Positions 3,396 to 20,979 of a stretch of 64,000 nt of DNA are shown piece after piece (position 1 is the first letter of the stretch; every line of letters starts with the position of its first letter). The notes under the pieces are model-generated. The model was not told the origin of the DNA, did not search any database, and saw only the letters and a program-made list of their open reading frames with translations. Position numbers and translations under genes: made by a program. This DNA is from a virus, in IMG/VR virus record IMGVR_UViG_3300034104_005002, positions 1 to 64,000 of that record; one strand, 5' to 3'.

Positions 3396-5735
3396 TCACT
3401 CTGCTTTAGCGAAGAAATTGTGCAAGCATTGGCTTGCATTAATTCTTACATGCTCAAGAGTATAATCAACCAAAAGTTGACCATTCTCATAAATAGTTAC
3501 TAACTCGTCTTTATTCCAGGGTCTTTCTGGAACAGTCTGATATTCTCCTTGTTCATTTTTGATGAGCTGAAGTCTACCTTTTTTAGATGTTTTGCCTGGG
3601 TCGGTTACAGGGTCTTTATAAACGTCACGCCAGGTTCCGTTTACATTTACCGAACTGCACTTCATTGCGAATTTAAAATCATCACGATTTACGTGTTGAA
3701 GCAATCCGCCACCTTGACCGAAGGCAATGTTATCCGAACTGTATCCATTTGCTTCTAGAACGTGAAGAACCCGGTCAATAGTTTCATAATTCACACCGTC
3801 CCCTTGAATGAGTCTGACGTGATTTAGAACCTTATAACCCTTAGAGTTCATAGTACTTCCAAAGTGATTATCCAAAAGTTGGGCGCACTTTAGATTGACT
3901 TCTACTGGGTCCCCAGAATTACCAGAAACCGCGATTCCCCTATTCCTTTTTACTAGAACCATTCCACTAGGAACTTTAACGCAATGTATAGTTCCTTTAT
4001 AATTTACTTTAGTTTTAGTAATAGATTGCCCACCAGCATAGGGAGTATCTAATATGTGGGTAGTATAGACTGTAGAGAAATGTGGTTTTCTATTGTCCTC
4101 CGCTACTGAAATTAAAACCCCCTTCCCAGCTGAAATAGAAATGTATTCTACTACATCCACGTTAGATTTGATAGTGGTATCATACTTAAATCTACCATCG
4201 TTTCTAATGGACGAATCCCAATGCTTCAATTCTTCGATGAATTGTTCACACCAATTGCCATCTAAATTAGAAATGTCAACCCAATCAAATGTTTTAGATA
4301 CTAAATTATCTATGGGAACTGAAATAGTTATAGTAGATTGACCTTTTCTACTAGTAAGATAATACACATTAAATTTATAATCTAGATTATTAAGTATATT
4401 AAGTAATCTGTTGTGCTTTCGTTCCTTTTGAAAATTAAATTCTATTTTATAATTCATTGAAGATGCTTTTTTAATACATCCATCTGCTTGTAGAGCGATT
4501 AAAAATCTCTCATGCCAAGTTAGTTGTTTTCCGGATGTCTTTGCTTTTGCTGAACGCAATTTTCTATAAGCCCAATTTCCTGGTTTATAATCTTGAGCCT
4601 CTTGTATACGAATTTTATCATTTCGATCAATAGTTACCACCCTATGATTGGGTGTAACTAATAGATCAATTTTACCATGAAAATCACGAATTTCATACAT
4701 ATCCCCCTCATATTGTTCATTTACAATTTTAAGAGGTTTAACAAATTCATAAGTCATGTCATCATTAACTTGTGCAACTAGATCGTTCTCTGTTAGGTTA
4801 GAAAAATATTTCCATCCACTAGGAGTCAAAATCTGCGTCTGATCGTCGTAGCAATCAGGCCTGACCACCAAGGTAGCCCCAGATTCAATTACTTGTTCTT
4901 TAAGTTCTTCTCCCCAAAGTTTATCGCAAGCATTGTAGATGTCATAACTATCACTTACACAAGCAATAATAGCACCCGGCCTCGCATAAAGATTCAACAT
5001 ATTACGATATGCCTCTACTTCATTTTCCTTACCCCAACTCGTGATAGTACTATGTTCTGATGCTGGAATACTGTAGCCCGCCATATCTTCGTGATAAAAT
5101 TCTTTACCATAAAGAAGCGCCGCAACAGTGTCGGTGCCCTTAAAATTAACTAGGTGAGCTAGTCCACCAATTCCTGCTGATTCATAAGAACTCACTCCGC
5201 GAAATCCAAAGTCTTGCATCTTAAAATCAATGAGATTCGGGTCTCCATTGCGGATAAGATAATTGAGAATAAGTTTCTTAGAATTATAAGAATTACTTGC
5301 AACAGTCGTTGGATACCAAATTGCGCGAAGTAGAGCAGTCTCTAAGAAACTAGTTAACCAATAGCAATTTGGGTCGGTATTTTCAATTGTAAGCAAAACA
5401 TTCTTGACAGGAATTACCATTCCTTCTGGAACAGCCTTGATTCTTACGGGGAGATATCCACCGTGCTTTTTGACAATGTATTCCCAACCACCGCGGTAGA
5501 AAGGTTCACCGTGAGCCTGAATAATTGCCTCGGCAATATCAATATCTTCCATCCTAATTGGTTTCATCAGATAGTCTTTTAGAAACATCTGAAGGCCAAA
5601 GAATAGCGTTTCATCGTGATGACCACCACGACTTTCAATGTAAGAAAATACACCTTCCGTCTGTGTGGGATATTGTGGAAACTGAGAATACTTATAGGAA
5701 TCCGAGTTGAGCAGTAAATTTTTGTTTAGGTCCAT
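3396..5735 (-). CDS. nadV: Nicotinamide phosphoribosyltransferase with in-frame intein
   Basis: NadV/NAMPT makes nicotinamide mononucleotide from nicotinamide and PRPP. The 779-aa precursor holds a 467-aa NAMPT (residues 1-294 and 607-779) interrupted by a 312-aa intein. NAMPT signatures are FLETALLRAIWYPT, the catalytic His in PASEHSTITSWG (H228), and VVRPD/SGDP, which is exactly where the intein sits (RPD|C...N|SGDP). After splicing the active-site loop RPDSGDP is restored. The gene is followed upstream by a macro-domain gene and nadM, giving a complete nicotinamide-to-NAD route. The start lies in a hairpin that exposes its Shine-Dalgarno GGAG. Confidence 0.93.
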   Translation of the reverse strand: MDLNKNLLLNSDSYKYSQFPQYPTQTEGVFSYIESRGGHHDETLFFGLQMFLKDYLMKPIRMEDIDIAEAIIQAHGEPFYRGGWEYIVKKHGGYLPVRIKAVPEGMVIPVKNVLLTIENTDPNCYWLTSFLETALLRAIWYPTTVASNSYNSKKLILNYLIRNGDPNLIDFKMQDFGFRGVSSYESAGIGGLAHLVNFKGTDTVAALLYGKEFYHEDMAGYSIPASEHSTITSWGKENEVEAYRNMLNLYARPGAIIACVSDSYDIYNACDKLWGEELKEQVIESGATLVVRPDCYDDQTQILTPSGWKYFSNLTENDLVAQVNDDMTYEFVKPLKIVNEQYEGDMYEIRDFHGKIDLLVTPNHRVVTIDRNDKIRIQEAQDYKPGNWAYRKLRSAKAKTSGKQLTWHERFLIALQADGCIKKASSMNYKIEFNFQKERKHNRLLNILNNLDYKFNVYYLTSRKGQSTITISVPIDNLVSKTFDWVDISNLDGNWCEQFIEELKHWDSSIRNDGRFKYDTTIKSNVDVVEYISISAGKGVLISVAEDNRKPHFSTVYTTHILDTPYAGGQSITKTKVNYKGTIHCVKVPSGMVLVKRNRGIAVSGNSGDPVEVNLKCAQLLDNHFGSTMNSKGYKVLNHVRLIQGDGVNYETIDRVLHVLEANGYSSDNIAFGQGGGLLQHVNRDDFKFAMKCSSVNVNGTWRDVYKDPVTDPGKTSKKGRLQLIKNEQGEYQTVPERPWNKDELVTIYENGQLLVDYTLEHVRINASQCLHNFFAKAE
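3918..4853 (-). mobile_element. LAGLIDADG-type intein in NadV
   Basis: Intein of 312 aa, residues 295-606 of the NadV precursor. Block A starts at Cys295 (CYDDQTQILTPSG), block B is LVTPNHRVV with the TxxH, and two dodecapeptide-like motifs (FLIALQADGCIKK and FIEELKHWDSS) mark a LAGLIDADG homing endonuclease. Block G is GIAVSGN followed by Ser607. The penultimate residue is Gly rather than the usual His, a known but less common variant. Insertion is in the catalytic loop, the most conserved spot of the host protein. Confidence 0.9.
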
Positions 5736-12964: not shown

Positions 12965-13011
12965 AATCCTGTCTGTGGAGTATTGTCGTACTAACAGACT
13001 AATATATTTAG

Positions 13012-14160
13012 TCAAAGTTTGAAGTTGGCGAAACTATCTGGTTTAATGTCCTGATTAAGACCCCCTACTAGATAAGAAGTAATCTGAACCTCTTGAGGTG
13101 CAACCTGCACCCCCTTTGAACTGAGCCAGTTATCCGTCCATGGAAGAGGATTATTATTGGCCGGAATATCATAAAGAGGTTTAAAACCAATAGCCTTCAT
13201 ACGTCTATTACAAACCCACTCAACATATTGACAAAGAAGAGCGGAGTTTAACCCTATAAGTGAGCCGTCTTTAAAAATATATTCGGCCCATCTTTTTTCT
13301 TGATTAACTGCTTCTTCAAATGTCTTATAAACCCATTGCTCTTCTTCTTTTGCAATTTTAATCATATCAGGATCGTCGCCTGATTTCCATTTTGAAAGAA
13401 TATTTTGAGTTATATTTAAATGAACGGCTTCATCGCGGCTAATTAGCGAAATAATCTTCGCACTTCCTTCCATTAACTTCAGCTCACCAAAGGCAAAAGA
13501 ACAAGCAAAGGAAACATAAAAGCGAATTCCTTCTAGGATATTCACTGCCATTATGGCTCGATAAAGTTTTCTCTTTACCTCATAAAGCTCATTTTTACCT
13601 AAATCTACACCCTCATTATTAAATTGCCAAAGATTTGAAGAAGAGTATTGTTGAGCATGTTGAATATATTCATCGTAATTATCAGTAATACTCTTGGCTC
13701 TCTCTAAAATTCTCTCATCTCCAATAATAGTATCAAATATTTCGGATGGATTAGCATAGATATTTTTTATAATATAAGTATATGATCGACTATGGATCAT
13801 TTCCATGAATCCCCAGGCTTCTATACATGATTCAAGTTCTGGTAAAGAACAATATGGCAGAAAAGCAATTGAAGTTCCTCGACCCTGAACAGAATCAAGC
13901 ATAATCTGATACTTTAAATTAGAAGTATAAATGTGTTTTTGCTCTGAGCGAAGAGTCTGATAATCTGCCCTATCTTTTTGAAGATTTATTTCTTCTGGAC
14001 GCCAAAAGAAACTGAGCTGCTGTTGTGTGAGTTTTTCAAAAATTGGGTATTTATACTCATCATATCGTTGGATCCCCAATGGAGCACTAAAAAACATTTT
14101 TTGCTTTTTAGTGTTAATTTCTTCTGTATTAAAAACTGTCATTCCTTTTACTTTAGACAT
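13012..14160 (-). CDS. nrdB: Ribonucleotide reductase class Ia, beta subunit
   Basis: Product of 382 aa that carries the diiron-tyrosyl radical for ribonucleotide reduction. Radical-site residues are seen: IMLDS (D89), GFMEMIHSRSYTYI (E120, H123, radical Tyr127), and the second ligand set in SRDEAVHLN. It pairs with the split nrdA genes directly upstream (12 bp from the last piece), so one transcript makes the whole enzyme. Full length. A strong terminator follows. Confidence 0.95.
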   Translation of the reverse strand: MSKVKGMTVFNTEEINTKKQKMFFSAPLGIQRYDEYKYPIFEKLTQQQLSFFWRPEEINLQKDRADYQTLRSEQKHIYTSNLKYQIMLDSVQGRGTSIAFLPYCSLPELESCIEAWGFMEMIHSRSYTYIIKNIYANPSEIFDTIIGDERILERAKSITDNYDEYIQHAQQYSSSNLWQFNNEGVDLGKNELYEVKRKLYRAIMAVNILEGIRFYVSFACSFAFGELKLMEGSAKIISLISRDEAVHLNITQNILSKWKSGDDPDMIKIAKEEEQWVYKTFEEAVNQEKRWAEYIFKDGSLIGLNSALLCQYVEWVCNRRMKAIGFKPLYDIPANNNPLPWTDNWLSSKGVQVAPQEVQITSYLVGGLNQDIKPDSFANFKL

Positions 14161-14172
14161 AAATTTCCTAGA

Positions 14173-14715
14173 TTAAACGTTACATGCGATACATTCTTCT
14201 TCTTCTGATGATAATATTTCAGATATTAAATCATCATTTTTAATTTCTTCGGCGGAAACATCATCGGTTTTGCCGTCATATGTGTTATGATAATATGCAG
14301 TTTTTGCACCATATTTGTATAGTAAAAGAATATTATTGACTATAACAGTGATCGGTACTTCATTATTTGGATAATTCTGAGGATTATAACTATCATTTAC
14401 ACTAATTCCCTGGTCAACGAACTTTTGCATAATAGAGACACAATTAATATATCCTTCATTTGAAGGCATTTCCCAGAGAAGTGTATAATTATTCTTTAGT
14501 TTATTATACTGAGGTACAATCTGTTTGAGAGTTCCCTTTTTAGATTGTTTAATGGAAAGATAATCCCTAGGAGGTTCTATTCCATTTGTTGCATTACACG
14601 AAACTGAACTATTATGAGATACTAGTCCTTCACAGTTGTAATGATGTACTTCCGGAACTTCAATGTCATAAGTTGGAAGAATTTCTCCTTCAAATTGAAT
14701 CGTTTTTACTTTCAT
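14173..14715 (-). CDS. nrdA: NrdA C-terminal piece with C-intein (split intein b)
   Basis: The first 35 residues are a C-terminal intein half (YDIEVPEVHHYNCEGLVSHN; blocks F and G with the HN end), followed by the C-extein starting SSVSCNATNGIEPP. The extein (145 aa) is the end of class Ia NrdA: the NATNGIEPPR loop and the C-terminal redox pair CIAC. A Shine-Dalgarno AAGGAG precedes the ATG. Trans-splicing with the N-intein at the end of 15818-17518 would restore PTES|SSVSCNATN, matching the conserved PSETSSQxSNATNG of NrdA. Confidence 0.93.
   Translation of the reverse strand: MKVKTIQFEGEILPTYDIEVPEVHHYNCEGLVSHNSSVSCNATNGIEPPRDYLSIKQSKKGTLKQIVPQYNKLKNNYTLLWEMPSNEGYINCVSIMQKFVDQGISVNDSYNPQNYPNNEVPITVIVNNILLLYKYGAKTAYYHNTYDGKTDDVSAEEIKNDDLISEILSSEEEECIACNV
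14611..14715 (-). mobile_element. Split intein b, C-terminal half (35 aa)
   Basis: Ends in His34-Asn35 before Ser; canonical split position, like other 35-aa IntC halves. Confidence 0.9.
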
Positions 14716-15766
14716 GTGTCTCCTTAAATTTTTTGTACTCGGTTAAAAGGTGGGTTTTAGTAATAGAACATTTATGTTGTTTTGAGCCATTAATACTCGC
14801 TGGAAGTATCTCTAAATTTACTATTGATCCAATTATTTCAGCTGGAATATTATTTATAAATCCCATTTTAATTGAATATTTGTGATCTAATTGAAAGTCT
14901 TTAGATCTCAATTCTAAATTCTCAATCAATTCTCCATAAAATAATAAACTCTGATTAGTATATCTAATTACAAGCGTTTTATATTTTTTAAAGTCGTCAG
15001 CAATGTCATTTTCAATCCATACTCCTAACTCCTCCATTCTTTTTCTATATTTTTCAGATACTTCAAGATAAATCTCTTGCCAAGTATCGGGGTATTTTTC
15101 ACGGAGATAATTGGTGTTTCTTTTATGATTGGGTTTTTTCTTATCTATTTCATTAAAAATAACAGCAATTTCATCTTCACTATATCCTCTTTGTCTATAA
15201 TATTCTCTATGAACACCAGAGGTTGATCTTTGATATTTACTAACTTCAATTTTAGCTTCTTCTAAACTATATCCACGATGGGTCCAATATTCTACAGTTC
15301 GTTTAGATTTTCTTTTCATAGCATATGCTTTTTCTTCTTCCCATGTTTCCCCATATTTTTCTTTGAACCATTCATCGGAAGACGGATATGCGCTGGTTAA
15401 TCTAAATTTTTCATACATTTCTAATCCTTTTTCTTCTCCATATCTTTTTATAAAAGCCTCTTTTGTTTGACCATTATCTATTTTATTTTGTTTAATAAGC
15501 TCAACAGCTTCATTATAAGAAAGGTTCCTTCTGTACATCCAATATTCTGGTTCATATTGAAGTTTTCTTTTATTTGGGTATAGAAAAACATAACTAACAT
15601 ATTTTTTAATAACCTCAAGATCAAATCTCTCTGGCGGGGTTTCTTCAAATGGCTTTCTTAATGACCTATAGTCAATTTTTCCGATTTGTTTCAATTCTGT
15701 TAAGAGTTCGTGCGGGGTTAAAATGTTAAATCTGGTTTTCATTAGAGTAACTAGTTTTGTCTTCAT
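14690..15766 (-). CDS. Free-standing homing endonuclease in the second nrdA break
   Basis: Product of 358 aa, the same family as 17508-18503. Repeated helical modules of the form YWxxRGxSxxEAxxxVxxxQ occur (EYWTHRGYSLEEAKIEVSKYQ, EYYRQRGYSEDEI), typical of DNA-binding repeats in phage homing enzymes. The C-terminal catalytic-looking region is DHKYSIKMGF, followed by IIGSIVNLEILP, KQHKCSI; the D-H, N and H/K pattern suggests an HNH-like fold. It occupies exactly the gap where an endonuclease domain would sit in a normal intein and overlaps the next start by 26 bp. Confidence 0.8.
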   Translation of the reverse strand: MKTKLVTLMKTRFNILTPHELLTELKQIGKIDYRSLRKPFEETPPERFDLEVIKKYVSYVFLYPNKRKLQYEPEYWMYRRNLSYNEAVELIKQNKIDNGQTKEAFIKRYGEEKGLEMYEKFRLTSAYPSSDEWFKEKYGETWEEEKAYAMKRKSKRTVEYWTHRGYSLEEAKIEVSKYQRSTSGVHREYYRQRGYSEDEIAVIFNEIDKKKPNHKRNTNYLREKYPDTWQEIYLEVSEKYRKRMEELGVWIENDIADDFKKYKTLVIRYTNQSLLFYGELIENLELRSKDFQLDHKYSIKMGFINNIPAEIIGSIVNLEILPASINGSKQHKCSITKTHLLTEYKKFKETHESKNDSI

Positions 15767-15817
15767 TGATGCCTTTACTAAACTATTATTATTTAGTAAA
15801 GTGAAGGCATCAACGCA

Positions 15818-17518
15818 TTAAATCTCAACTACTTCGTCATCTTCATTCAATTCATAAACTCGCTTCCAGATAGTGGAACCATTTTCTAGTCGAACCAAAA
15901 ACTTATGATTGGGTGTACACTTAATCACTTTACCATTTTCAAAGGTAATAGTCGCAACTTCTTTATTTCCATTGAAATAAAGTTTATCAACTTCTTTGTA
16001 TCCATCTTGAGTTTCAACTGTAATAGTCTTGTTCAGGTCATACCAGCCGATTGCATCATTTTCCTCAATCCCTCTCCAATCAAGTCCACCATATTCGGCA
16101 ATTTGATGGAAGTCCATTTCCCCGGTAGAAGTTTTAATCTTATGTTCCCAAAAAAGGCAACTCTCCGTTGGGGGTTGAGAGGAGAGTGTAGTATGGCGAA
16201 GACCATGTTCTAAAATATCCTGACGAAGTTGTTCCCAGTCATGAGTATATTCTACATCACAAATTTCATCAACTTCTTTCTTATAAGTATCAATTGGAAG
16301 AATTCCATCAGAATACTTAGTGTGTTTAAAGTTGTCACATGCACCCTTTTCTTTTGCTAGATTATTGGATGATTTTAGAAGATAATACTGAAAACTTTCA
16401 GTTAATTTGTGGACGGCTTCCCAGGCGCCAGGATCAGAATATTTAAATCCCAATTTAGCAAGATAATGAGCCAGACCAATATAACCAATACCTAGAGAAC
16501 GACTAGCCTTGGTTGTTAATTCGGCGGCCTTAACAGGATATTCCTGGTGGTCAATTAGCTCATCTAAAAATCTAACGGAAAGATCACAACATTCTTCAAG
16601 TTCTTTATCAGACTTAATTGTACCTACATTAACACAAGAAAGAATACAAAGAGCAATAGATCCATCTACATCATCAATATGTTCAATCGGGGTAGTTTTC
16701 AGCAAAATTTCCATACAAAGATTACTCATTGTAATCTGATCCTTAAAAGGACCGTGCGAATTACAATGATCAATATTCATAAGATAAATTCGACCGGTCT
16801 CCGCACGCTCTTTCAAGATATCAATAATAAGCTCTTGGGCCTTTACTTTTTTCTTTGGAATAGAAGGATCATTTTCATACTTTACATAAAGTTCATCAAA
16901 TCCATCTAAACCAAATTTTTCATAAAGACCTGGAACATTATGCGGTGAAAACAGAGTAATTTCTCCATCCTGAATAAATCGCTCATAAAAAATTTTACTC
17001 AGCTGAATGGCATAATCAAGGTTGCGAACACGATTATCTTCTGAGCCTTTATTATTTTTTAATACAATAATATCCTCGATTTCTTGGTGCCACACAGGAA
17101 AAAATACTGTGGATGAATTATGAGTTAAAGTAAATTTTCCATTTTTGCCGACAAAATAGTTGTGATATTTATCAACAGTAAAATCATAAAAAGTTTTATC
17201 ACAATTAGATTTATAATTATGATCATTTAAAATGTCAATATAATCACCATAAACCCCTAATCCAAAAATGTTGTCGATTTCCCGTGAGTCCACCCATTTC
17301 TTATTAAGTCCATCATAAAAAGGATGAATACTAGAAGTATAAACAACCTCCCCACCAATAAGAATTTCTTCCTGATATTCTTTTTTTATTGTTGGAGTAA
17401 ATAAATTTGTTACATTTCCAACACAAAATTTATCATCAAATTCGTTATAACAATAGACTCTATCTCCAACGGAGACATCTGAAATTCTTTTCTTTGCCAG
17501 ATTAATTTTAATTTCCAT
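15818..17518 (-). CDS. nrdA: NrdA middle piece flanked by C-intein (a) and N-intein (b)
   Basis: A 566-aa precursor in three parts. Residues 1-134 are a C-intein half ending FTLTHN before Ser135; it includes block B (TSSIHPF) as well as blocks F and G. Residues 135-453 are NrdA: STVFFPVWHQEIE, VLKNNKG, the radical-site MSNLCMEIL (N-x-C-x-E) and LCILSCVNVG. Residues 454-566 are the N-half of a second intein (CLFWEHKIKT, block B CTPNHKFL). Two trans-splicing events, one on each side, are needed to yield functional enzyme. It has no independent activity as written. Confidence 0.93.
   Translation of the reverse strand: MEIKINLAKKRISDVSVGDRVYCYNEFDDKFCVGNVTNLFTPTIKKEYQEEILIGGEVVYTSSIHPFYDGLNKKWVDSREIDNIFGLGVYGDYIDILNDHNYKSNCDKTFYDFTVDKYHNYFVGKNGKFTLTHNSSTVFFPVWHQEIEDIIVLKNNKGSEDNRVRNLDYAIQLSKIFYERFIQDGEITLFSPHNVPGLYEKFGLDGFDELYVKYENDPSIPKKKVKAQELIIDILKERAETGRIYLMNIDHCNSHGPFKDQITMSNLCMEILLKTTPIEHIDDVDGSIALCILSCVNVGTIKSDKELEECCDLSVRFLDELIDHQEYPVKAAELTTKASRSLGIGYIGLAHYLAKLGFKYSDPGAWEAVHKLTESFQYYLLKSSNNLAKEKGACDNFKHTKYSDGILPIDTYKKEVDEICDVEYTHDWEQLRQDILEHGLRHTTLSSQPPTESCLFWEHKIKTSTGEMDFHQIAEYGGLDWRGIEENDAIGWYDLNKTITVETQDGYKEVDKLYFNGNKEVATITFENGKVIKCTPNHKFLVRLENGSTIWKRVYELNEDDEVVEI
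15821..16159 (-). mobile_element. Split intein b, N-terminal half (113 aa)
   Basis: Begins at Cys454 of the middle NrdA precursor and contains blocks A and B; canonical length for IntN. Confidence 0.9.
17117..17518 (-). mobile_element. Split intein a, C-terminal half (134 aa)
   Basis: Carries ISDVSVGDRVY, block B (TSSIHPF), and the FTLTHN end. It is unusually long because the break lies between blocks A and B. Confidence 0.88.
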
Positions 17519-18503
17519 TTTCGTACTTTTCTAATAAGGTTTCGAGTGTTATTGAGCAATTAGATTGTTTTTTTGAGTTTTCTGATTGAGAAACATATCT
17601 AAGATTATAAATAGATCCAATTATTTTTGGAGGAACATCATTATAAAAACCCCAAAAAACGCTATACATATGATCTAGAGTTTGACTTTTATCAGTTTTG
17701 ACAAAAGTATCTTTATACAATCTTAGAGTTTTTTTTGTTTCGCGTTGAACCTCCTTTTTATAAACGAAAAAAGCATATTCATCACCAATTTCGACACTCT
17801 TTTTATTTTGAATATTAGTTTTTTTGGTTTTTTCAAGTATAGATTCTTGTATATCAAGAGCCTCAAATTTATCGCACCCATATCGTTTCATTATGGCACT
17901 TATAGAATTGTTATCTTGATATTCAGAAACTTTTAATTTTGCTTCTTCTTCGGTATAACCAATTCTAATCCAATAATATATGCTTCTTGGGCTACTTTCT
18001 TTTGAAAATTTTGATACTAATTTTTTTGCATCCTCTAATGAGTGACCCCTATTTAACCAATAATCCACTGTTCTAGGAGAACAACTTCTCCTTCTTTGAC
18101 AACAATATTCATATGCCTCATCATAACTACAATTTAATTTTTGTTGAACATTTTTAATCTCAACATCAAATCTATTTTGAAGATTTTCTTTTCTTTTATT
18201 AAACTTAGCTAGACCCTCCTCCTCTCCGTACTTCTCAATATAAATTTCCAAATCTAAAGGCTTAGATTGAAATTCCCTAACCTTTATTATGGCTTCTTCT
18301 TCGCTAAATCCTCGGGTCATCCAATACTCTTTTGCATTGGGTCTATTATGTTTTTCTTTAAATGGTACATTTTTATCCAAAAATTCCCTGTAAAGTTTCT
18401 GAGCTTCCTCTTGATTTCCATTGGTTTTTTTAAGATAAAAGTAGATACTAAAAGGAGATCTACTTTTTCTAATCGTTTCTTCGTTCCAAATTAAGTCTTC
18501 CAT
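17508..18503 (-). CDS. Free-standing homing endonuclease in the first nrdA break
   Basis: Product of 331 aa. Three modules of the YWxxRGxSxEEAxxxVxxxQ type (EYWMTRGFSEEEAIIKVREF, DYWLNRGHSLEDAKKLVSKF, YYWIRIGYTEEEAKLKVSEY) precede a C-terminal domain with TLDHMYSVFWGF, PPKIIGSIYNL and KQSNCSI. The C-terminal block aligns by eye with that of 14690-15766. Probably promotes spread of the split intein a. It overlaps the next start by 11 bp and follows the N-piece of nrdA by 3 bp. Confidence 0.8.
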   Translation of the reverse strand: MEDLIWNEETIRKSRSPFSIYFYLKKTNGNQEEAQKLYREFLDKNVPFKEKHNRPNAKEYWMTRGFSEEEAIIKVREFQSKPLDLEIYIEKYGEEEGLAKFNKRKENLQNRFDVEIKNVQQKLNCSYDEAYEYCCQRRRSCSPRTVDYWLNRGHSLEDAKKLVSKFSKESSPRSIYYWIRIGYTEEEAKLKVSEYQDNNSISAIMKRYGCDKFEALDIQESILEKTKKTNIQNKKSVEIGDEYAFFVYKKEVQRETKKTLRLYKDTFVKTDKSQTLDHMYSVFWGFYNDVPPKIIGSIYNLRYVSQSENSKKQSNCSITLETLLEKYENGN

Positions 18504-18506
18504 TTT

Positions 18507-19559
18507 TTACTCCAATAACATAACGGTTTTATTTCCGTTATGACTATTTATAATTTCAGACACTTTAACCCCATCAATTTCATCATCGAGTGTATAAATT
18601 TTACCATCAATTTCTACACTATCAATTAATAAAACTTCAGAATCAGAATCAAAACAACCCCCGCGAATTCCATTTTGCGTACAACTTTTTACAGTGGCCT
18701 CAAACTTTTTCAGATAAGGAATAACTCCAGTGTGGACAACCTCACCGCCACGAATTTTACTATTTATTCCTCTAATACGCCCAGCATTAATACCTAGACC
18801 GGCTCGCTGTGCGACATATCTAAAAACCGCAGCATCACTGGCCTCAATGCTAGAAAGACTATCTCCCACGTCAACAAGAACACAACTACTATATTGCCTC
18901 AATCTAGTTCTGACTCCAGCAAGAATTGGTGTAGGAATATTAATTTTATGTTTACTAATTGCATCATAATAACGCTTCACATAAGACATTCTTTTGTCTT
19001 TAGGGTATTTTGCAAAGCCCGTAAGAGCAATTAATAAGTACATAAACTGCGGAGTCTCATAAAGAACGTTATCCACTCGGTCTTGCACAAGATACTTATC
19101 AACTACCTGCCGAAGGCCAGCATAAGTAAACAAAAGATCCCGGTCATGGTCAATAAAAGAATTGACCAAATCTAGTTCTTCTTCAGAATAGTTCTCATAA
19201 ATGGAGGCATCATAAACACCAAGGTCTACACACTTTTTAATGTGCTCACTCAGATGAGGTAGATCAATTCGACCACCATAGATCTTCTTCCGAATTGAAA
19301 ACAGAAGAAGTCTTGCGGCCACGTATTGATAATTAGGATTATCTAGAGAAATAAGATCAGATGCGGCCTTGATCAAGATTTCTTGAATTTCATTGGTTGA
19401 AATACCATCATAAAATTGAATCCCAGATGCCATTTCTACCTGAGATACTGAAACTCCAGAAAGGCCCTCACATGCGCAGGCGACCATCTCATGGAGTTTA
19501 GAAAGTTGCAATGGCTCAATAGTGCCATTGCGTTTTTTGACTTTGATTTCTTCGCTCAT
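18507..19559 (-). CDS. nrdA: NrdA N-terminal piece with N-intein (split intein a)
   Basis: Residues 1-301 are the N-terminal NrdA: an ATP-cone (KKRNGTIEPLQLSKLHEMV), then the core including the substrate-site Cys in SSCVLVDVGDS and the EATVKSCTQNGIRGG segment. Residues 302-350 begin at Cys302 (CFDSDSEVLLIDS) and are a very short N-intein. Joined to 15818-17518 the sequence becomes RGG|SSTVFFP, matching the NrdA consensus RGGAATLFYP. The three exteins add up to 765 aa, the size of a normal NrdA. The start overlaps the primase gene by 44 bp. Confidence 0.93.
   Translation of the reverse strand: MSEEIKVKKRNGTIEPLQLSKLHEMVACACEGLSGVSVSQVEMASGIQFYDGISTNEIQEILIKAASDLISLDNPNYQYVAARLLLFSIRKKIYGGRIDLPHLSEHIKKCVDLGVYDASIYENYSEEELDLVNSFIDHDRDLLFTYAGLRQVVDKYLVQDRVDNVLYETPQFMYLLIALTGFAKYPKDKRMSYVKRYYDAISKHKINIPTPILAGVRTRLRQYSSCVLVDVGDSLSSIEASDAAVFRYVAQRAGLGINAGRIRGINSKIRGGEVVHTGVIPYLKKFEATVKSCTQNGIRGGCFDSDSEVLLIDSVEIDGKIYTLDDEIDGVKVSEIINSHNGNKTVMLLE
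18510..18656 (-). mobile_element. Split intein a, N-terminal half (49 aa)
   Basis: Only block A is present; block B is on the partner. Atypically early split. Confidence 0.85.
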
Positions 19560-20517
19560 TTTTCTTCCAATAGTTGAATTTAAGTTGTGCTTCTAGGTCT
19601 TTGTAAATATTTTTGGACAAAACGTCCTCAACATCAATTCCCGCAAGAACTGCATCATTAACGTCTTTTTGTTTTATTGTATCTGGCCATATGACTATTG
19701 AATAACCCTCTTTGATTACCTTTGACATTCTAGAATGTATTTCTTGGTTGCGAGGTTCGTTGTCATAAACATATACCGGGTAATAGATATTTAGACTTTT
19801 TAGATCTAAATCGGCCCCGCACATGGCGACCGAATTTTTAATAAAGTAAGAATCAAAAGGTCCTTCTAGGACATAAACAAATTCTTTTTTATTAACATTA
19901 TCATAATTATAAATCTTCGGAGAATGCTCATCAAACATGATTGTGATGTATTTTACCGAAGAAGAATTAAGGGCTCGGCCTTGTACTCCTATTAATTTCT
20001 TATTATAGTACAAAGGTATTACTATTCTGGGCTCTTCTAAAAGATTTGGCTCATAAGTAATTTCATTGATCCATTGTTTGAAGTTTTCGGTATAATAAAA
20101 CTTATCCGGATCAATTTTTCTTTTTAAGAGATATTGTCTTGCAACATCATTTTTAGATGCAGCCGGAAGCCCAACTCTTTCTCTAAAATTTGGTTTTGAT
20201 ATTTCAAATTTAGGAGCCTCAACAACAAAATTCTTTCCAGTAAAGCCAGCCTTATATTTTTCAATTGTAAACTCTTTATAAAGAGGTGGGTCTATTTCTT
20301 TTAAAAAGTTATTAAGAGAAATACTGATTCCGCAGTTATGGCACTTATAATTCGTGTTATTATCTACCGGATAGAGATATCCTCTGGCCTTTTTTTTAGA
20401 TCTAGAAGAGTCGCCACAATAGGGACATCGAAAATTATAAAGTTTAGGTTTTACTTTCTTGAAGTTTTGTAGTCTAGGTGCAACACGTTCAATAAAGGTT
20501 TCATCAATAAAATCCAA
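19516..20517 (-). CDS. 61: DNA primase, T4 gp61-like
   Basis: Product of 333 aa (T4 gp61 is 342). It makes RNA primers with the gp41 helicase. A zinc ribbon is seen at CPYC (C31, C34) and CHNC (C59, C62); the TOPRIM core shows YVLEGPFDSYF (catalytic Glu) and YVYDNEPRN (DxD-like). Its 3' end overlaps the start of nrdA. Confident from the motif order and the T4-like context. Confidence 0.93.
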   Translation of the reverse strand: MDFIDETFIERVAPRLQNFKKVKPKLYNFRCPYCGDSSRSKKKARGYLYPVDNNTNYKCHNCGISISLNNFLKEIDPPLYKEFTIEKYKAGFTGKNFVVEAPKFEISKPNFRERVGLPAASKNDVARQYLLKRKIDPDKFYYTENFKQWINEITYEPNLLEEPRIVIPLYYNKKLIGVQGRALNSSSVKYITIMFDEHSPKIYNYDNVNKKEFVYVLEGPFDSYFIKNSVAMCGADLDLKSLNIYYPVYVYDNEPRNQEIHSRMSKVIKEGYSIVIWPDTIKQKDVNDAVLAGIDVEDVLSKNIYKDLEAQLKFNYWKKNERRNQSQKTQWHY

Positions 20518-20523
20518 TTCACA

Positions 20524-20979
20524 TCACTTCTGGACTGGGGCCATTGTAGCATGAGGAACAGGAGTTGTCAAGTGCTGTGGATGTGCCAGGATCTTAACAA
20601 AGAACCCAGAGTTCTGAATGACAAATCCAAGAAATGTACCGATGCCTAGAACCACAGCGATTTTTAGATTAATTTTATTTTGACCTTTTTCTACATCAGT
20701 TAGACGCTTATCAATATTAGTACTTAGTGTCTTTATTTCAGTAAGAACATTTTTATGATCTTCCTGCATTTGTGTATAGATTGTGTCTATTTTTTCATTA
20801 AGACTCTTTTCGGCTCTTTCTCTAGTGTCAATTTTTTCTTCATGGACCGCAATCATTTTTGTCAGGCTGACATTTACCTGGCTTATTTTTTCGATTGCTT
20901 CATCAACCTTAAGAACAAATTCTTTAAGGTCTTGAACTCGTTGCTCTAGAACAGCAACTTTGATTAAATCTTCTGACAT
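20524..20979 (-). CDS. Coiled-coil protein with C-terminal membrane segment (151 aa)
   Basis: Residues 5-95 are a long heptad-like coiled coil, then a single membrane helix (IAVVLGIGTFLGFVIQ, about 107-122) and a His/Pro-rich tail. This layout recalls XhlA-type membrane proteins linked to lysis, but no family is certain. It lies 6 bp after the primase gene in order of transcription upstream of it. Confidence 0.65.
   Translation of the reverse strand: MSEDLIKVAVLEQRVQDLKEFVLKVDEAIEKISQVNVSLTKMIAVHEEKIDTRERAEKSLNEKIDTIYTQMQEDHKNVLTEIKTLSTNIDKRLTDVEKGQNKINLKIAVVLGIGTFLGFVIQNSGFFVKILAHPQHLTTPVPHATMAPVQK

What the first reader, a model, noticed from the sequence alone, without database searches (positions are those of the whole stretch)
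14173..19559. NrdA made from three genes joined by two different split inteins
The three NrdA pieces carry intein halves at their broken ends. The N-piece ends at Cys302 with an N-half; the middle piece starts with a C-half (ending in HN before Ser) and ends with another N-half; the C-piece starts with a 35-aa C-half. The exteins total 765 aa, a normal NrdA, and the rejoined junctions RGG|SSTVFFP and PTES|SSVSCNATNG match conserved NrdA sites. Fractured genes with split inteins are known from marine metagenomes, including RNR, but two consecutive breaks in one gene are striking, since both splicing pairs must avoid crossing.
Basis: partly seen in the sequence, partly recalled or inferred. Interest (0 to 1): 0.92.

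Follow-up and report, generated by a model that had tools for sequence, protein, structure and literature searches.

The report
Phage enzyme split by two inteins
A T4-like phage encodes one essential enzyme (the large subunit of ribonucleotide reductase) as three separate proteins that two different split inteins should stitch together, each intein carrying its own homing-endonuclease gene in the gap; single breaks of this kind are known, but two in one gene, built with different split points, is a rare variant that relatives show is real, mobile and recurrent.

Summary
On the minus strand, 14173-19559, NrdA is encoded in three ORFs. Removing four intein halves gives a seamless 765-aa class Ia NrdA (86.6 kDa), the only NrdA in the record. 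So this is a double 'fractured gene'. The inteins are dissimilar and split differently: intein a after block A (49+134 aa, atypical), intein b at the usual place (113+35 aa). The wrong pair N-half a + C-half b should not form an intein. Sequencing error is excluded: four near-identical contigs and a diverged one (L121; exteins 60-74% identical) have the same layout. Relatives supply other states: intein a contiguous (L145), intein b split without an endonuclease (L091) or with a relic (L095), and a third site c. Element b is mobile: 95-98% identical DNA between phages whose adjacent nrdA is 69% identical. The halves and both endonucleases are under purifying selection. Campylobacter phage WX1 already contains an unremarked double fracture at sites c and b. 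Splicing itself is inferred. Verdict: real, a new variant of a known kind.

The parts
18657..19559 (-). NrdA N-extein, residues 1-301 (ATP cone, all-alpha domain, start of barrel)
   Evidence: Pfam/NCBIfam; alignment to solved NrdA
18510..18656 (-). N-half of intein a (49 aa: ~21-aa core with Cys1 plus 28-aa tail); stop codon 18507-18509
   Evidence: core defined by comparison with contiguous intein a of L145
18545..18552 (-). TATAAATA, T4-type late-promoter-like site inside the coding region of the N-half a tail; also present in L121, L143, L152
   Evidence: chance expectation in the window is 5 matches (11 found), so weak by itself
18519..18542 (-). hairpin CATAACGG-N8-CCGTTATG upstream of endonuclease gene A; strong here, weak in relatives
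17508..18503 (-). free-standing HNH-like homing endonuclease gene A (331 aa), between halves of intein a; 11-nt overlap with next ORF
   Evidence: dN/dS 0.14-0.23
17117..17518 (-). C-half of intein a (134 aa, holds block B TSSIH, block F, ends LTHN)
   Evidence: PT-HINT, intein_Cterm; A3
16160..17116 (-). NrdA middle extein, residues 302-620
15821..16159 (-). N-half of intein b (113 aa, Cys1, block B CTPNH); stop codon 15818-15820
   Evidence: Intein_splicing, intein_Nterm
15766..15815 (-). hairpin that buries the AAAGG ribosome-binding site of endonuclease gene B; loop ACTAAATAATA
   Evidence: dG -24.1, z -7.3; kept with different stem sequence in L092, L093, L119
14690..15766 (-). free-standing HNH-like homing endonuclease gene B (358 aa), between halves of intein b; 26-nt overlap with next ORF
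   Evidence: dN/dS 0.14-0.22
14611..14715 (-). C-half of intein b (35 aa, ends SHN)
   Evidence: intein_Cterm
14173..14610 (-). NrdA C-extein, residues 621-765 (end of the phosphate loop to C-terminal cysteines)
13012..14160 (-). nrdB, uninterrupted partner subunit (context)

Best explanation
This nrdA carries two independent 'fractured-gene' elements. Each is a split intein whose halves are fused to the broken ends of NrdA, with a free-standing HNH-like homing endonuclease gene between them. The three NrdA pieces are translated separately. Intein a joins piece 1 to piece 2 (RGG|SSTVFFP) and intein b joins piece 2 to piece 3 (PTES|SSV) by protein trans-splicing, giving one 765-aa NrdA. Order is kept because the inteins are dissimilar and split at different points: N-half a + C-half b lack block B and are too small; the other wrong pair, C-half a + N-half b, sits on one chain and would circularise the middle piece, and is opposed by sequence divergence. 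At the DNA level each endonuclease presumably cuts empty nrdA alleles at its site so that the element is copied in. Endonuclease B is probably made late, when a late transcript lacks the hairpin that hides its ribosome-binding site. Shown from sequence: anatomy, homology, selection, lateral spread of element b. Inferred: splicing, pair specificity, cleavage, late timing.
For: Anatomy and families. Class 1 intein residues in both pairs: Cys1, TxxH block B, HN|Ser. Pairing supported by unsplit homologues: contiguous 150-aa intein a in L145 and 169-aa in Campylobacter phage IBB_35; contiguous 146-aa intein b in IBB_35. Purifying selection on Na, Ca, Nb and both endonucleases, dN/dS 0.09-0.35 in pairs with enough unsaturated change. 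Same double fracture in four near-identical contigs and in diverged L121. 73 of the fetched nrdA loci are empty at all three sites. Lateral spread: L122/L123 adjacent extein DNA 69% vs N-half b 98%; L121/L123 69 vs 95; L095/L097 61 vs 91; endonuclease b of L097/L123 100%; the extein data reject the element's grouping, AU p 0.007. Inteins a and b show no significant similarity. An RBS-burying or RBS-adjacent hairpin is present in window, L092, L093, L097, L119 and L121 (L122 weak) and absent in L091 and L095, which have lost the endonuclease; T4 endonucleases are controlled in this way (PMC2988022).
Against: No biochemical or proteomic data. AlphaFold2 models of endonuclease B (C-terminal domain pLDDT below 50) and of contiguous intein a (mean 36) were uninformative, so the intein fold of pair a and the nuclease fold rest on sequence motifs and profiles. 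The endonucleases match no named Pfam family and no solved structure. Hairpin a is not conserved, so late control of endonuclease A is weak. One study found that atypically split pairs and overlapping halves account for most residual cross-talk (PMC7090010), so split position alone need not guarantee specificity.
Confidence: 0.86

Rival explanations
1. Genes in pieces without splicing: the three NrdA fragments assemble non-covalently into an active enzyme, as in Aeromonas phage Aeh1, and the intein halves are remnants.
For: Precedent in Aeh1, whose nrdA is cut in two by mobE and still works (PMC3653736). No direct splicing data here.
Against: All splicing residues are intact in both pairs, and the halves are under purifying selection. 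The breaks fall next to allosteric loop 2 (a) and inside the phosphate-binding loop (b) (E. coli residue roles from memory, offsets), where a chain end with a 35-134 aa appendage would be hard to tolerate.
Confidence: 0.06
2. Decaying pseudogene: inteins and endonucleases have broken nrdA beyond repair, as proposed for some Campylobacter phages.
For: PMC3653736 argues this for Campylobacter nrdA.
Against: Exteins intact and join without loss; N-extein dN/dS 0.07-0.17 across intein-a carriers where not saturated; nrdB intact; same layout kept in a lineage with 60-74% extein identity (L121); a relic endonuclease is visible in L095 but its intein halves stay intact.
Confidence: 0.04
3. Artefact: frameshifts or chimeric assembly.
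For: The window and its nearest relatives are all metagenomic assemblies.
Against: Five contigs of the same type, plus L121 and, with one fracture each, L143, L152, L097, L122; cultured phages phiKp_21 and WX1 have corresponding single and double fractures.
Confidence: 0.02
4. The intervening DNA is removed as RNA (group I/II introns) instead of as protein.
For: Introns in phage RNR genes are common (PMC3653736).
Against: No Rfam family in 13000-20600 even at E 0.1; the sequences flanking the breaks are intein halves in frame, with their own start and stop codons.
Confidence: 0.02

Closest known systems
Fractured genes of Dassa et al. 2009 (NAR 37:2560; known here through citing papers and memory, paper not held): split intein + free-standing endonuclease gene in phage DNA-metabolism genes, incl. 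7 nrdA and 2 nrdJ cases in GOS data (PMC3653736)
   Same: Conserved enzyme gene broken by a split intein, endonuclease gene in the gap, phage context, nrdA as host gene
   Different: Two fractures in one gene with two dissimilar inteins, one atypically split; the two endonucleases are paralogues; a contiguous allele of intein a and endonuclease-free alleles of b are seen here. Whether the 2009 set contained a double fracture could not be checked
Campylobacter phage vB_CjeM_WX1 nrdA (OP654737; L236)
   Same: Three NrdA CDSs, two split inteins, b-site endonuclease 30% identical to endonuclease B (E 2e-18)
   Different: Fractured at sites c and b, both split canonically; other ORFs in gap c; site a empty; annotated only as three RNR fragments
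Klebsiella phage phiKp_21 nrdA (LC768485; L235)
   Same: Site b fracture with homologous N-half (37%) and endonuclease (28%, E 2e-22)
   Different: Single fracture
[quoted passage not shown]
   Same: Inteins at the same sites a, c, b
   Different: a and b contiguous, only c split; the paper reports two inteins
Atypically split inteins (e.g. PolB16 OarG, 15+168 aa, PMC10189870)
   Same: Short N-half split after block A, long C-half
   Different: Here with an endonuclease gene in the gap and a 28-aa extra tail; Cys1/Ser+1
T4 I-TevI / Aeh1 mobE expression control (PMC2988022)
   Same: Hairpin hides the RBS in read-through mRNA; late-promoter-like sequence at the hairpin
   Different: Here in front of an endonuclease between split-intein halves; untested

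Membership tests
Class Ia ribonucleotide reductase large subunit (NrdA) | ATP cone, all-alpha domain, barrel with catalytic Cys, C-terminal Cys pair | tested here: met
   Pfam domains in order over the three pieces; PRK09103 1-751; alignment to 7mdi/2r1r; SNLC motif and C-x-x-C end by reading
Class 1 intein, pair a | Cys1, block B TxxH, C-terminal HN, nucleophile at +1 | tested here: met
   CFDS..., TSSIH, LTHN|S; same in contiguous L145
Class 1 intein, pair b | Cys1, block B TxxH, C-terminal HN, nucleophile at +1 | tested here: met
   CLFWEH..., CTPNH, SHN|S; TIGR01445/TIGR01443 hits
Split intein | Halves on separate ORFs that splice in trans | not testable with these tools
   Separate ORFs confirmed; splicing needs an experiment
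Atypically split intein (pair a) | Short N-half without block B, long C-half with block B | tested here: met
   49 aa (core ~21) and 134 aa
Fractured gene (Dassa 2009) | Enzyme gene broken by split intein with endonuclease gene in the gap | tested here: met
   Twice in this gene
HNH/His-Me homing endonuclease | D-H ... N ... N-x2-K catalytic motif and nuclease fold | tested here: inconclusive
   Motif DH.....GF.N...N......N..K conserved in 13 homologues; no Pfam/PDB match, fold not predicted; cleavage untested
Vsr-like (EDxHD) endonuclease of fractured genes | Vsr fold, EDxHD motif | tested here: inconclusive
   No Vsr Pfam hit; motif looks HNH-like; the Dassa family profile was not available here
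Aeh1-type genes-in-pieces NrdA | Break without intein or intron | tested here: not met
   Intein halves at all four broken ends

The most novel reading that the evidence does not exclude
In these phages one nrdA acts as a docking array with three intein sites, at which elements switch between empty, contiguous, split-with-endonuclease and split-without-endonuclease states; double fractures were assembled at least twice from separately mobile elements, and the dissimilar, differently split inteins keep the assembly order. A split intein has either arisen from, or been re-fused into, a contiguous one by gain or loss of an endonuclease cassette (L145 versus window, L121, L143, L152).
Probability: 0.6. 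Interest if true: 0.72.

Novelty: new variant of a known kind. Interest (0 to 1): 0.62.

Why it matters
How split inteins arise has been an open question since fractured genes were found. Here, in one gene family, the intermediate states exist side by side: contiguous and fractured intein a, and intein b with endonuclease, with a relic and without one. It also supplies a natural ordered three-fragment assembly by two dissimilar inteins, one with an unusually short N-half core, which is what protein engineers build by hand.

Tried and rejected
AlphaFold2 of endonuclease B with 10 homologues (pLDDT 64; the nuclease domain below 50) and of contiguous intein a from L145 (mean 36): too weak to search with Foldseek. 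Profile search of the endonuclease family against PDB: nothing. Group I/II intron reading: no Rfam hit. Late control of endonuclease A: TATAAATA is kept in four lineages but the hairpin is not, so only suggestive. Electrostatic complementarity as a pairing code: all four halves are net negative, so not supported. 'Cyanophage' label: nearest records are Synechococcus phages but no psbA was found, so I say T4-like only. Direction of change between split and contiguous intein a: L145 groups with L152 and L121 in C-half identity, which fits re-fusion, but repeated insertion of the endonuclease cannot be excluded.
Full report
OBSERVATION. Cutting at the motifs GG|CFDS, THN|SST, TES|CLF and SHN|SSV gives exteins of 301, 319 and 145 aa and halves of 49 (Na), 134 (Ca), 113 (Nb) and 35 (Cb) aa. 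Pfam and NCBIfam find ATP cone, all-alpha and barrel domains of NrdA in order over the three pieces, a HINT domain in Ca, the intein N-terminal model in Nb and the intein C-terminal model at the ends of Ca and Cb. The joined 765-aa protein aligns to solved class Ia NrdA through both junctions with no gap there. It is the only NrdA in the 161,054-bp record.

Each gap (1540 and 1549 nt from extein to extein) holds one free-standing gene: endonuclease A, 331 aa, and endonuclease B, 358 aa. They are paralogues (33% over 281 aa, E 1e-28). Both have repeats of the type 'YWxxRGYSxEEAxxxVSxYQ' and a C-terminal domain with a conserved DH..S..GF.N....II.S..N......N..K motif, of the kind seen in HNH/His-Me nucleases. 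No Pfam family or solved structure matches, and AlphaFold2 could not place that domain. Relatives sit at site b of Klebsiella phage phiKp_21 and Campylobacter phage WX1 nrdA. So the layout is a fractured gene, twice.

TWO DIFFERENT SPLITS. Intein a is split after block A: its C-half holds block B (TSSIH). Intein b is split at the usual place: its N-half holds block B (CTPNH). The pairing is supported by unsplit homologues. L145 has a contiguous 150-aa intein at site a, in frame, with its C-terminal part 89% identical to that of fractured L152. IBB_35 has contiguous inteins at a (169 aa) and b (146 aa) that align along their whole length. Against L145, the split form has a 28-aa tail on Na and about six extra residues at the start of Ca; the Campylobacter intein has a roughly 20-aa insertion at the same point, so this point tolerates insertions.

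WHY CROSSING IS UNLIKELY. Na + Cb (84 aa) would lack block B. Ca + Nb would duplicate it; that pair flanks the middle extein in the order C-half, extein, N-half, the topology used to circularise proteins, so mispairing would make a dead circle. Inteins a and b share no significant similarity (best E 0.33), whereas b and c are related (30%, E 4e-8). A published matrix of split inteins found most residual cross-talk in atypically split pairs and where halves of the same intein overlap (PMC7090010), so the argument is good but not proof.

SITES. With offsets read from the alignment to solved NrdA and E. coli residue roles from memory: site a follows allosteric loop 2, site c precedes the radical cysteine (C439), site b lies inside the phosphate-binding loop. 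An unspliced piece could hardly be active.

RELATIVES. Among about 180 classified nrdA loci (some contigs occur more than once) 73 are empty at all three sites. Site c is broken in 73 loci, 71 of them with an N-half of 100-147 aa (Cc 33 aa in those read); a GIY-YIG endonuclease was identified in the one gap examined, L123. Site a is fractured in the window type (five contigs), L121, L143 and L152. Site b is fractured with endonuclease in the window type, L092, L093, L097, L121, L122, L123, without it in L091, and with a frame-shifted relic in L095. L085, nearly identical to the window phage, adds a contiguous intein at site c, making three inteins in one nrdA. Double fractures: a+b in the window type and in L121; c+b in L123 and in cultured phage WX1. 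In the N-half b tree the window groups with L091-L093 and L121 with L122, L123, L095 and L097 (100/100), so the two a+b combinations took their b elements from different clades.

MOBILITY AND SELECTION. In the DNA next to site b, L122 and L123 are 69% identical in the extein but 98% in N-half b; L121/L123 69 and 95; L095/L097 61 and 91; endonuclease b of L097 and L123 is 100% identical and so is the downstream extein compared, while the upstream extein is 69%. Extein data reject the grouping seen in the element (AU p 0.007). This is what homing with co-conversion would leave; chimeric assembly is a caveat for any single pair. dN/dS is 0.19-0.35 for Na, 0.09-0.30 for Ca, mostly 0.11-0.27 for Nb, 0.14-0.23 for the endonucleases; one very close Nb pair gave 0.51 on few changes.

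CONTROL OF THE ENDONUCLEASES. Upstream of endonuclease B a hairpin (dG -24.1 kcal/mol, z -7.3) buries the ribosome-binding site and abuts the start codon; it recurs with a different stem in L092 and L093 and nearly identical in L119, and as different hairpins in L097 (loop with a perfect TATAAATA) and L121; it is absent in L091 and L095, which have lost the gene; L122 is weak. A transcript starting in the loop would fold at only -2.7 kcal/mol. T4 endonucleases I-TevI, I-TevII, I-TevIII, segB and Aeh1 mobE are regulated this way (PMC2988022). For endonuclease A, TATAAATA within the Na tail is kept in four lineages but the hairpin is not.

KNOWN OR NEW. Fractured genes with split inteins and endonucleases, including nrdA, were described in 2009 (Dassa et al., not held here; cited in PMC3653736). 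Searches of the held library found no report of two fractures in one gene; IBB_35 nrdA was reported to have two inteins (PMC3322345). WX1 shows that a double fracture already lies in a public phage genome, annotated only as three RNR fragments. I therefore rate this a new variant of a known kind. The most interesting part is the set of intermediate states and the repeated assembly of double fractures.

Noticed in passing
window 3396-5735 (-): A 779-aa ORF that reads as a nicotinamide phosphoribosyltransferase interrupted by a contiguous intein (PF14890 E 6.8e-5).
   Followed up: partly
L085 6802-7257: Near-identical sister of the window phage (249.8-kb contig) has a third, contiguous intein of 152 aa at site c directly before the radical cysteine.
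   Followed up: yes
L145 1429-1878: Contiguous 150-aa version of intein a without endonuclease, nested by identity among the fractured ones.
   Followed up: yes
L123 2822-4033: Site c intein split by a GIY-YIG endonuclease gene in the same nrdA that is also fractured at site b.
   Followed up: partly
L095 3500-5440; L145 2300-3280: A further insertion after 'QHID' of NrdA (about 15 residues past site c) with NUMOD/GIY-YIG-like ORFs; no intein or Rfam intron found; may be a non-spliced break or an unknown intron.
   Followed up: no
L091 6906-9044: nrdB next to a fractured nrdA also has a contiguous intein.
   Followed up: no
L236 (Campylobacter phage WX1) 266-5423; L234 (IBB_35): Three-piece NrdA with two split inteins in a cultured phage; gap c holds two ORFs (113 and 217 aa) of unknown function.
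   Followed up: partly
L126-L136: Distant members of the endonuclease family near intein-half-like sequences in other large phages; the host genes were not identified.
   Followed up: no
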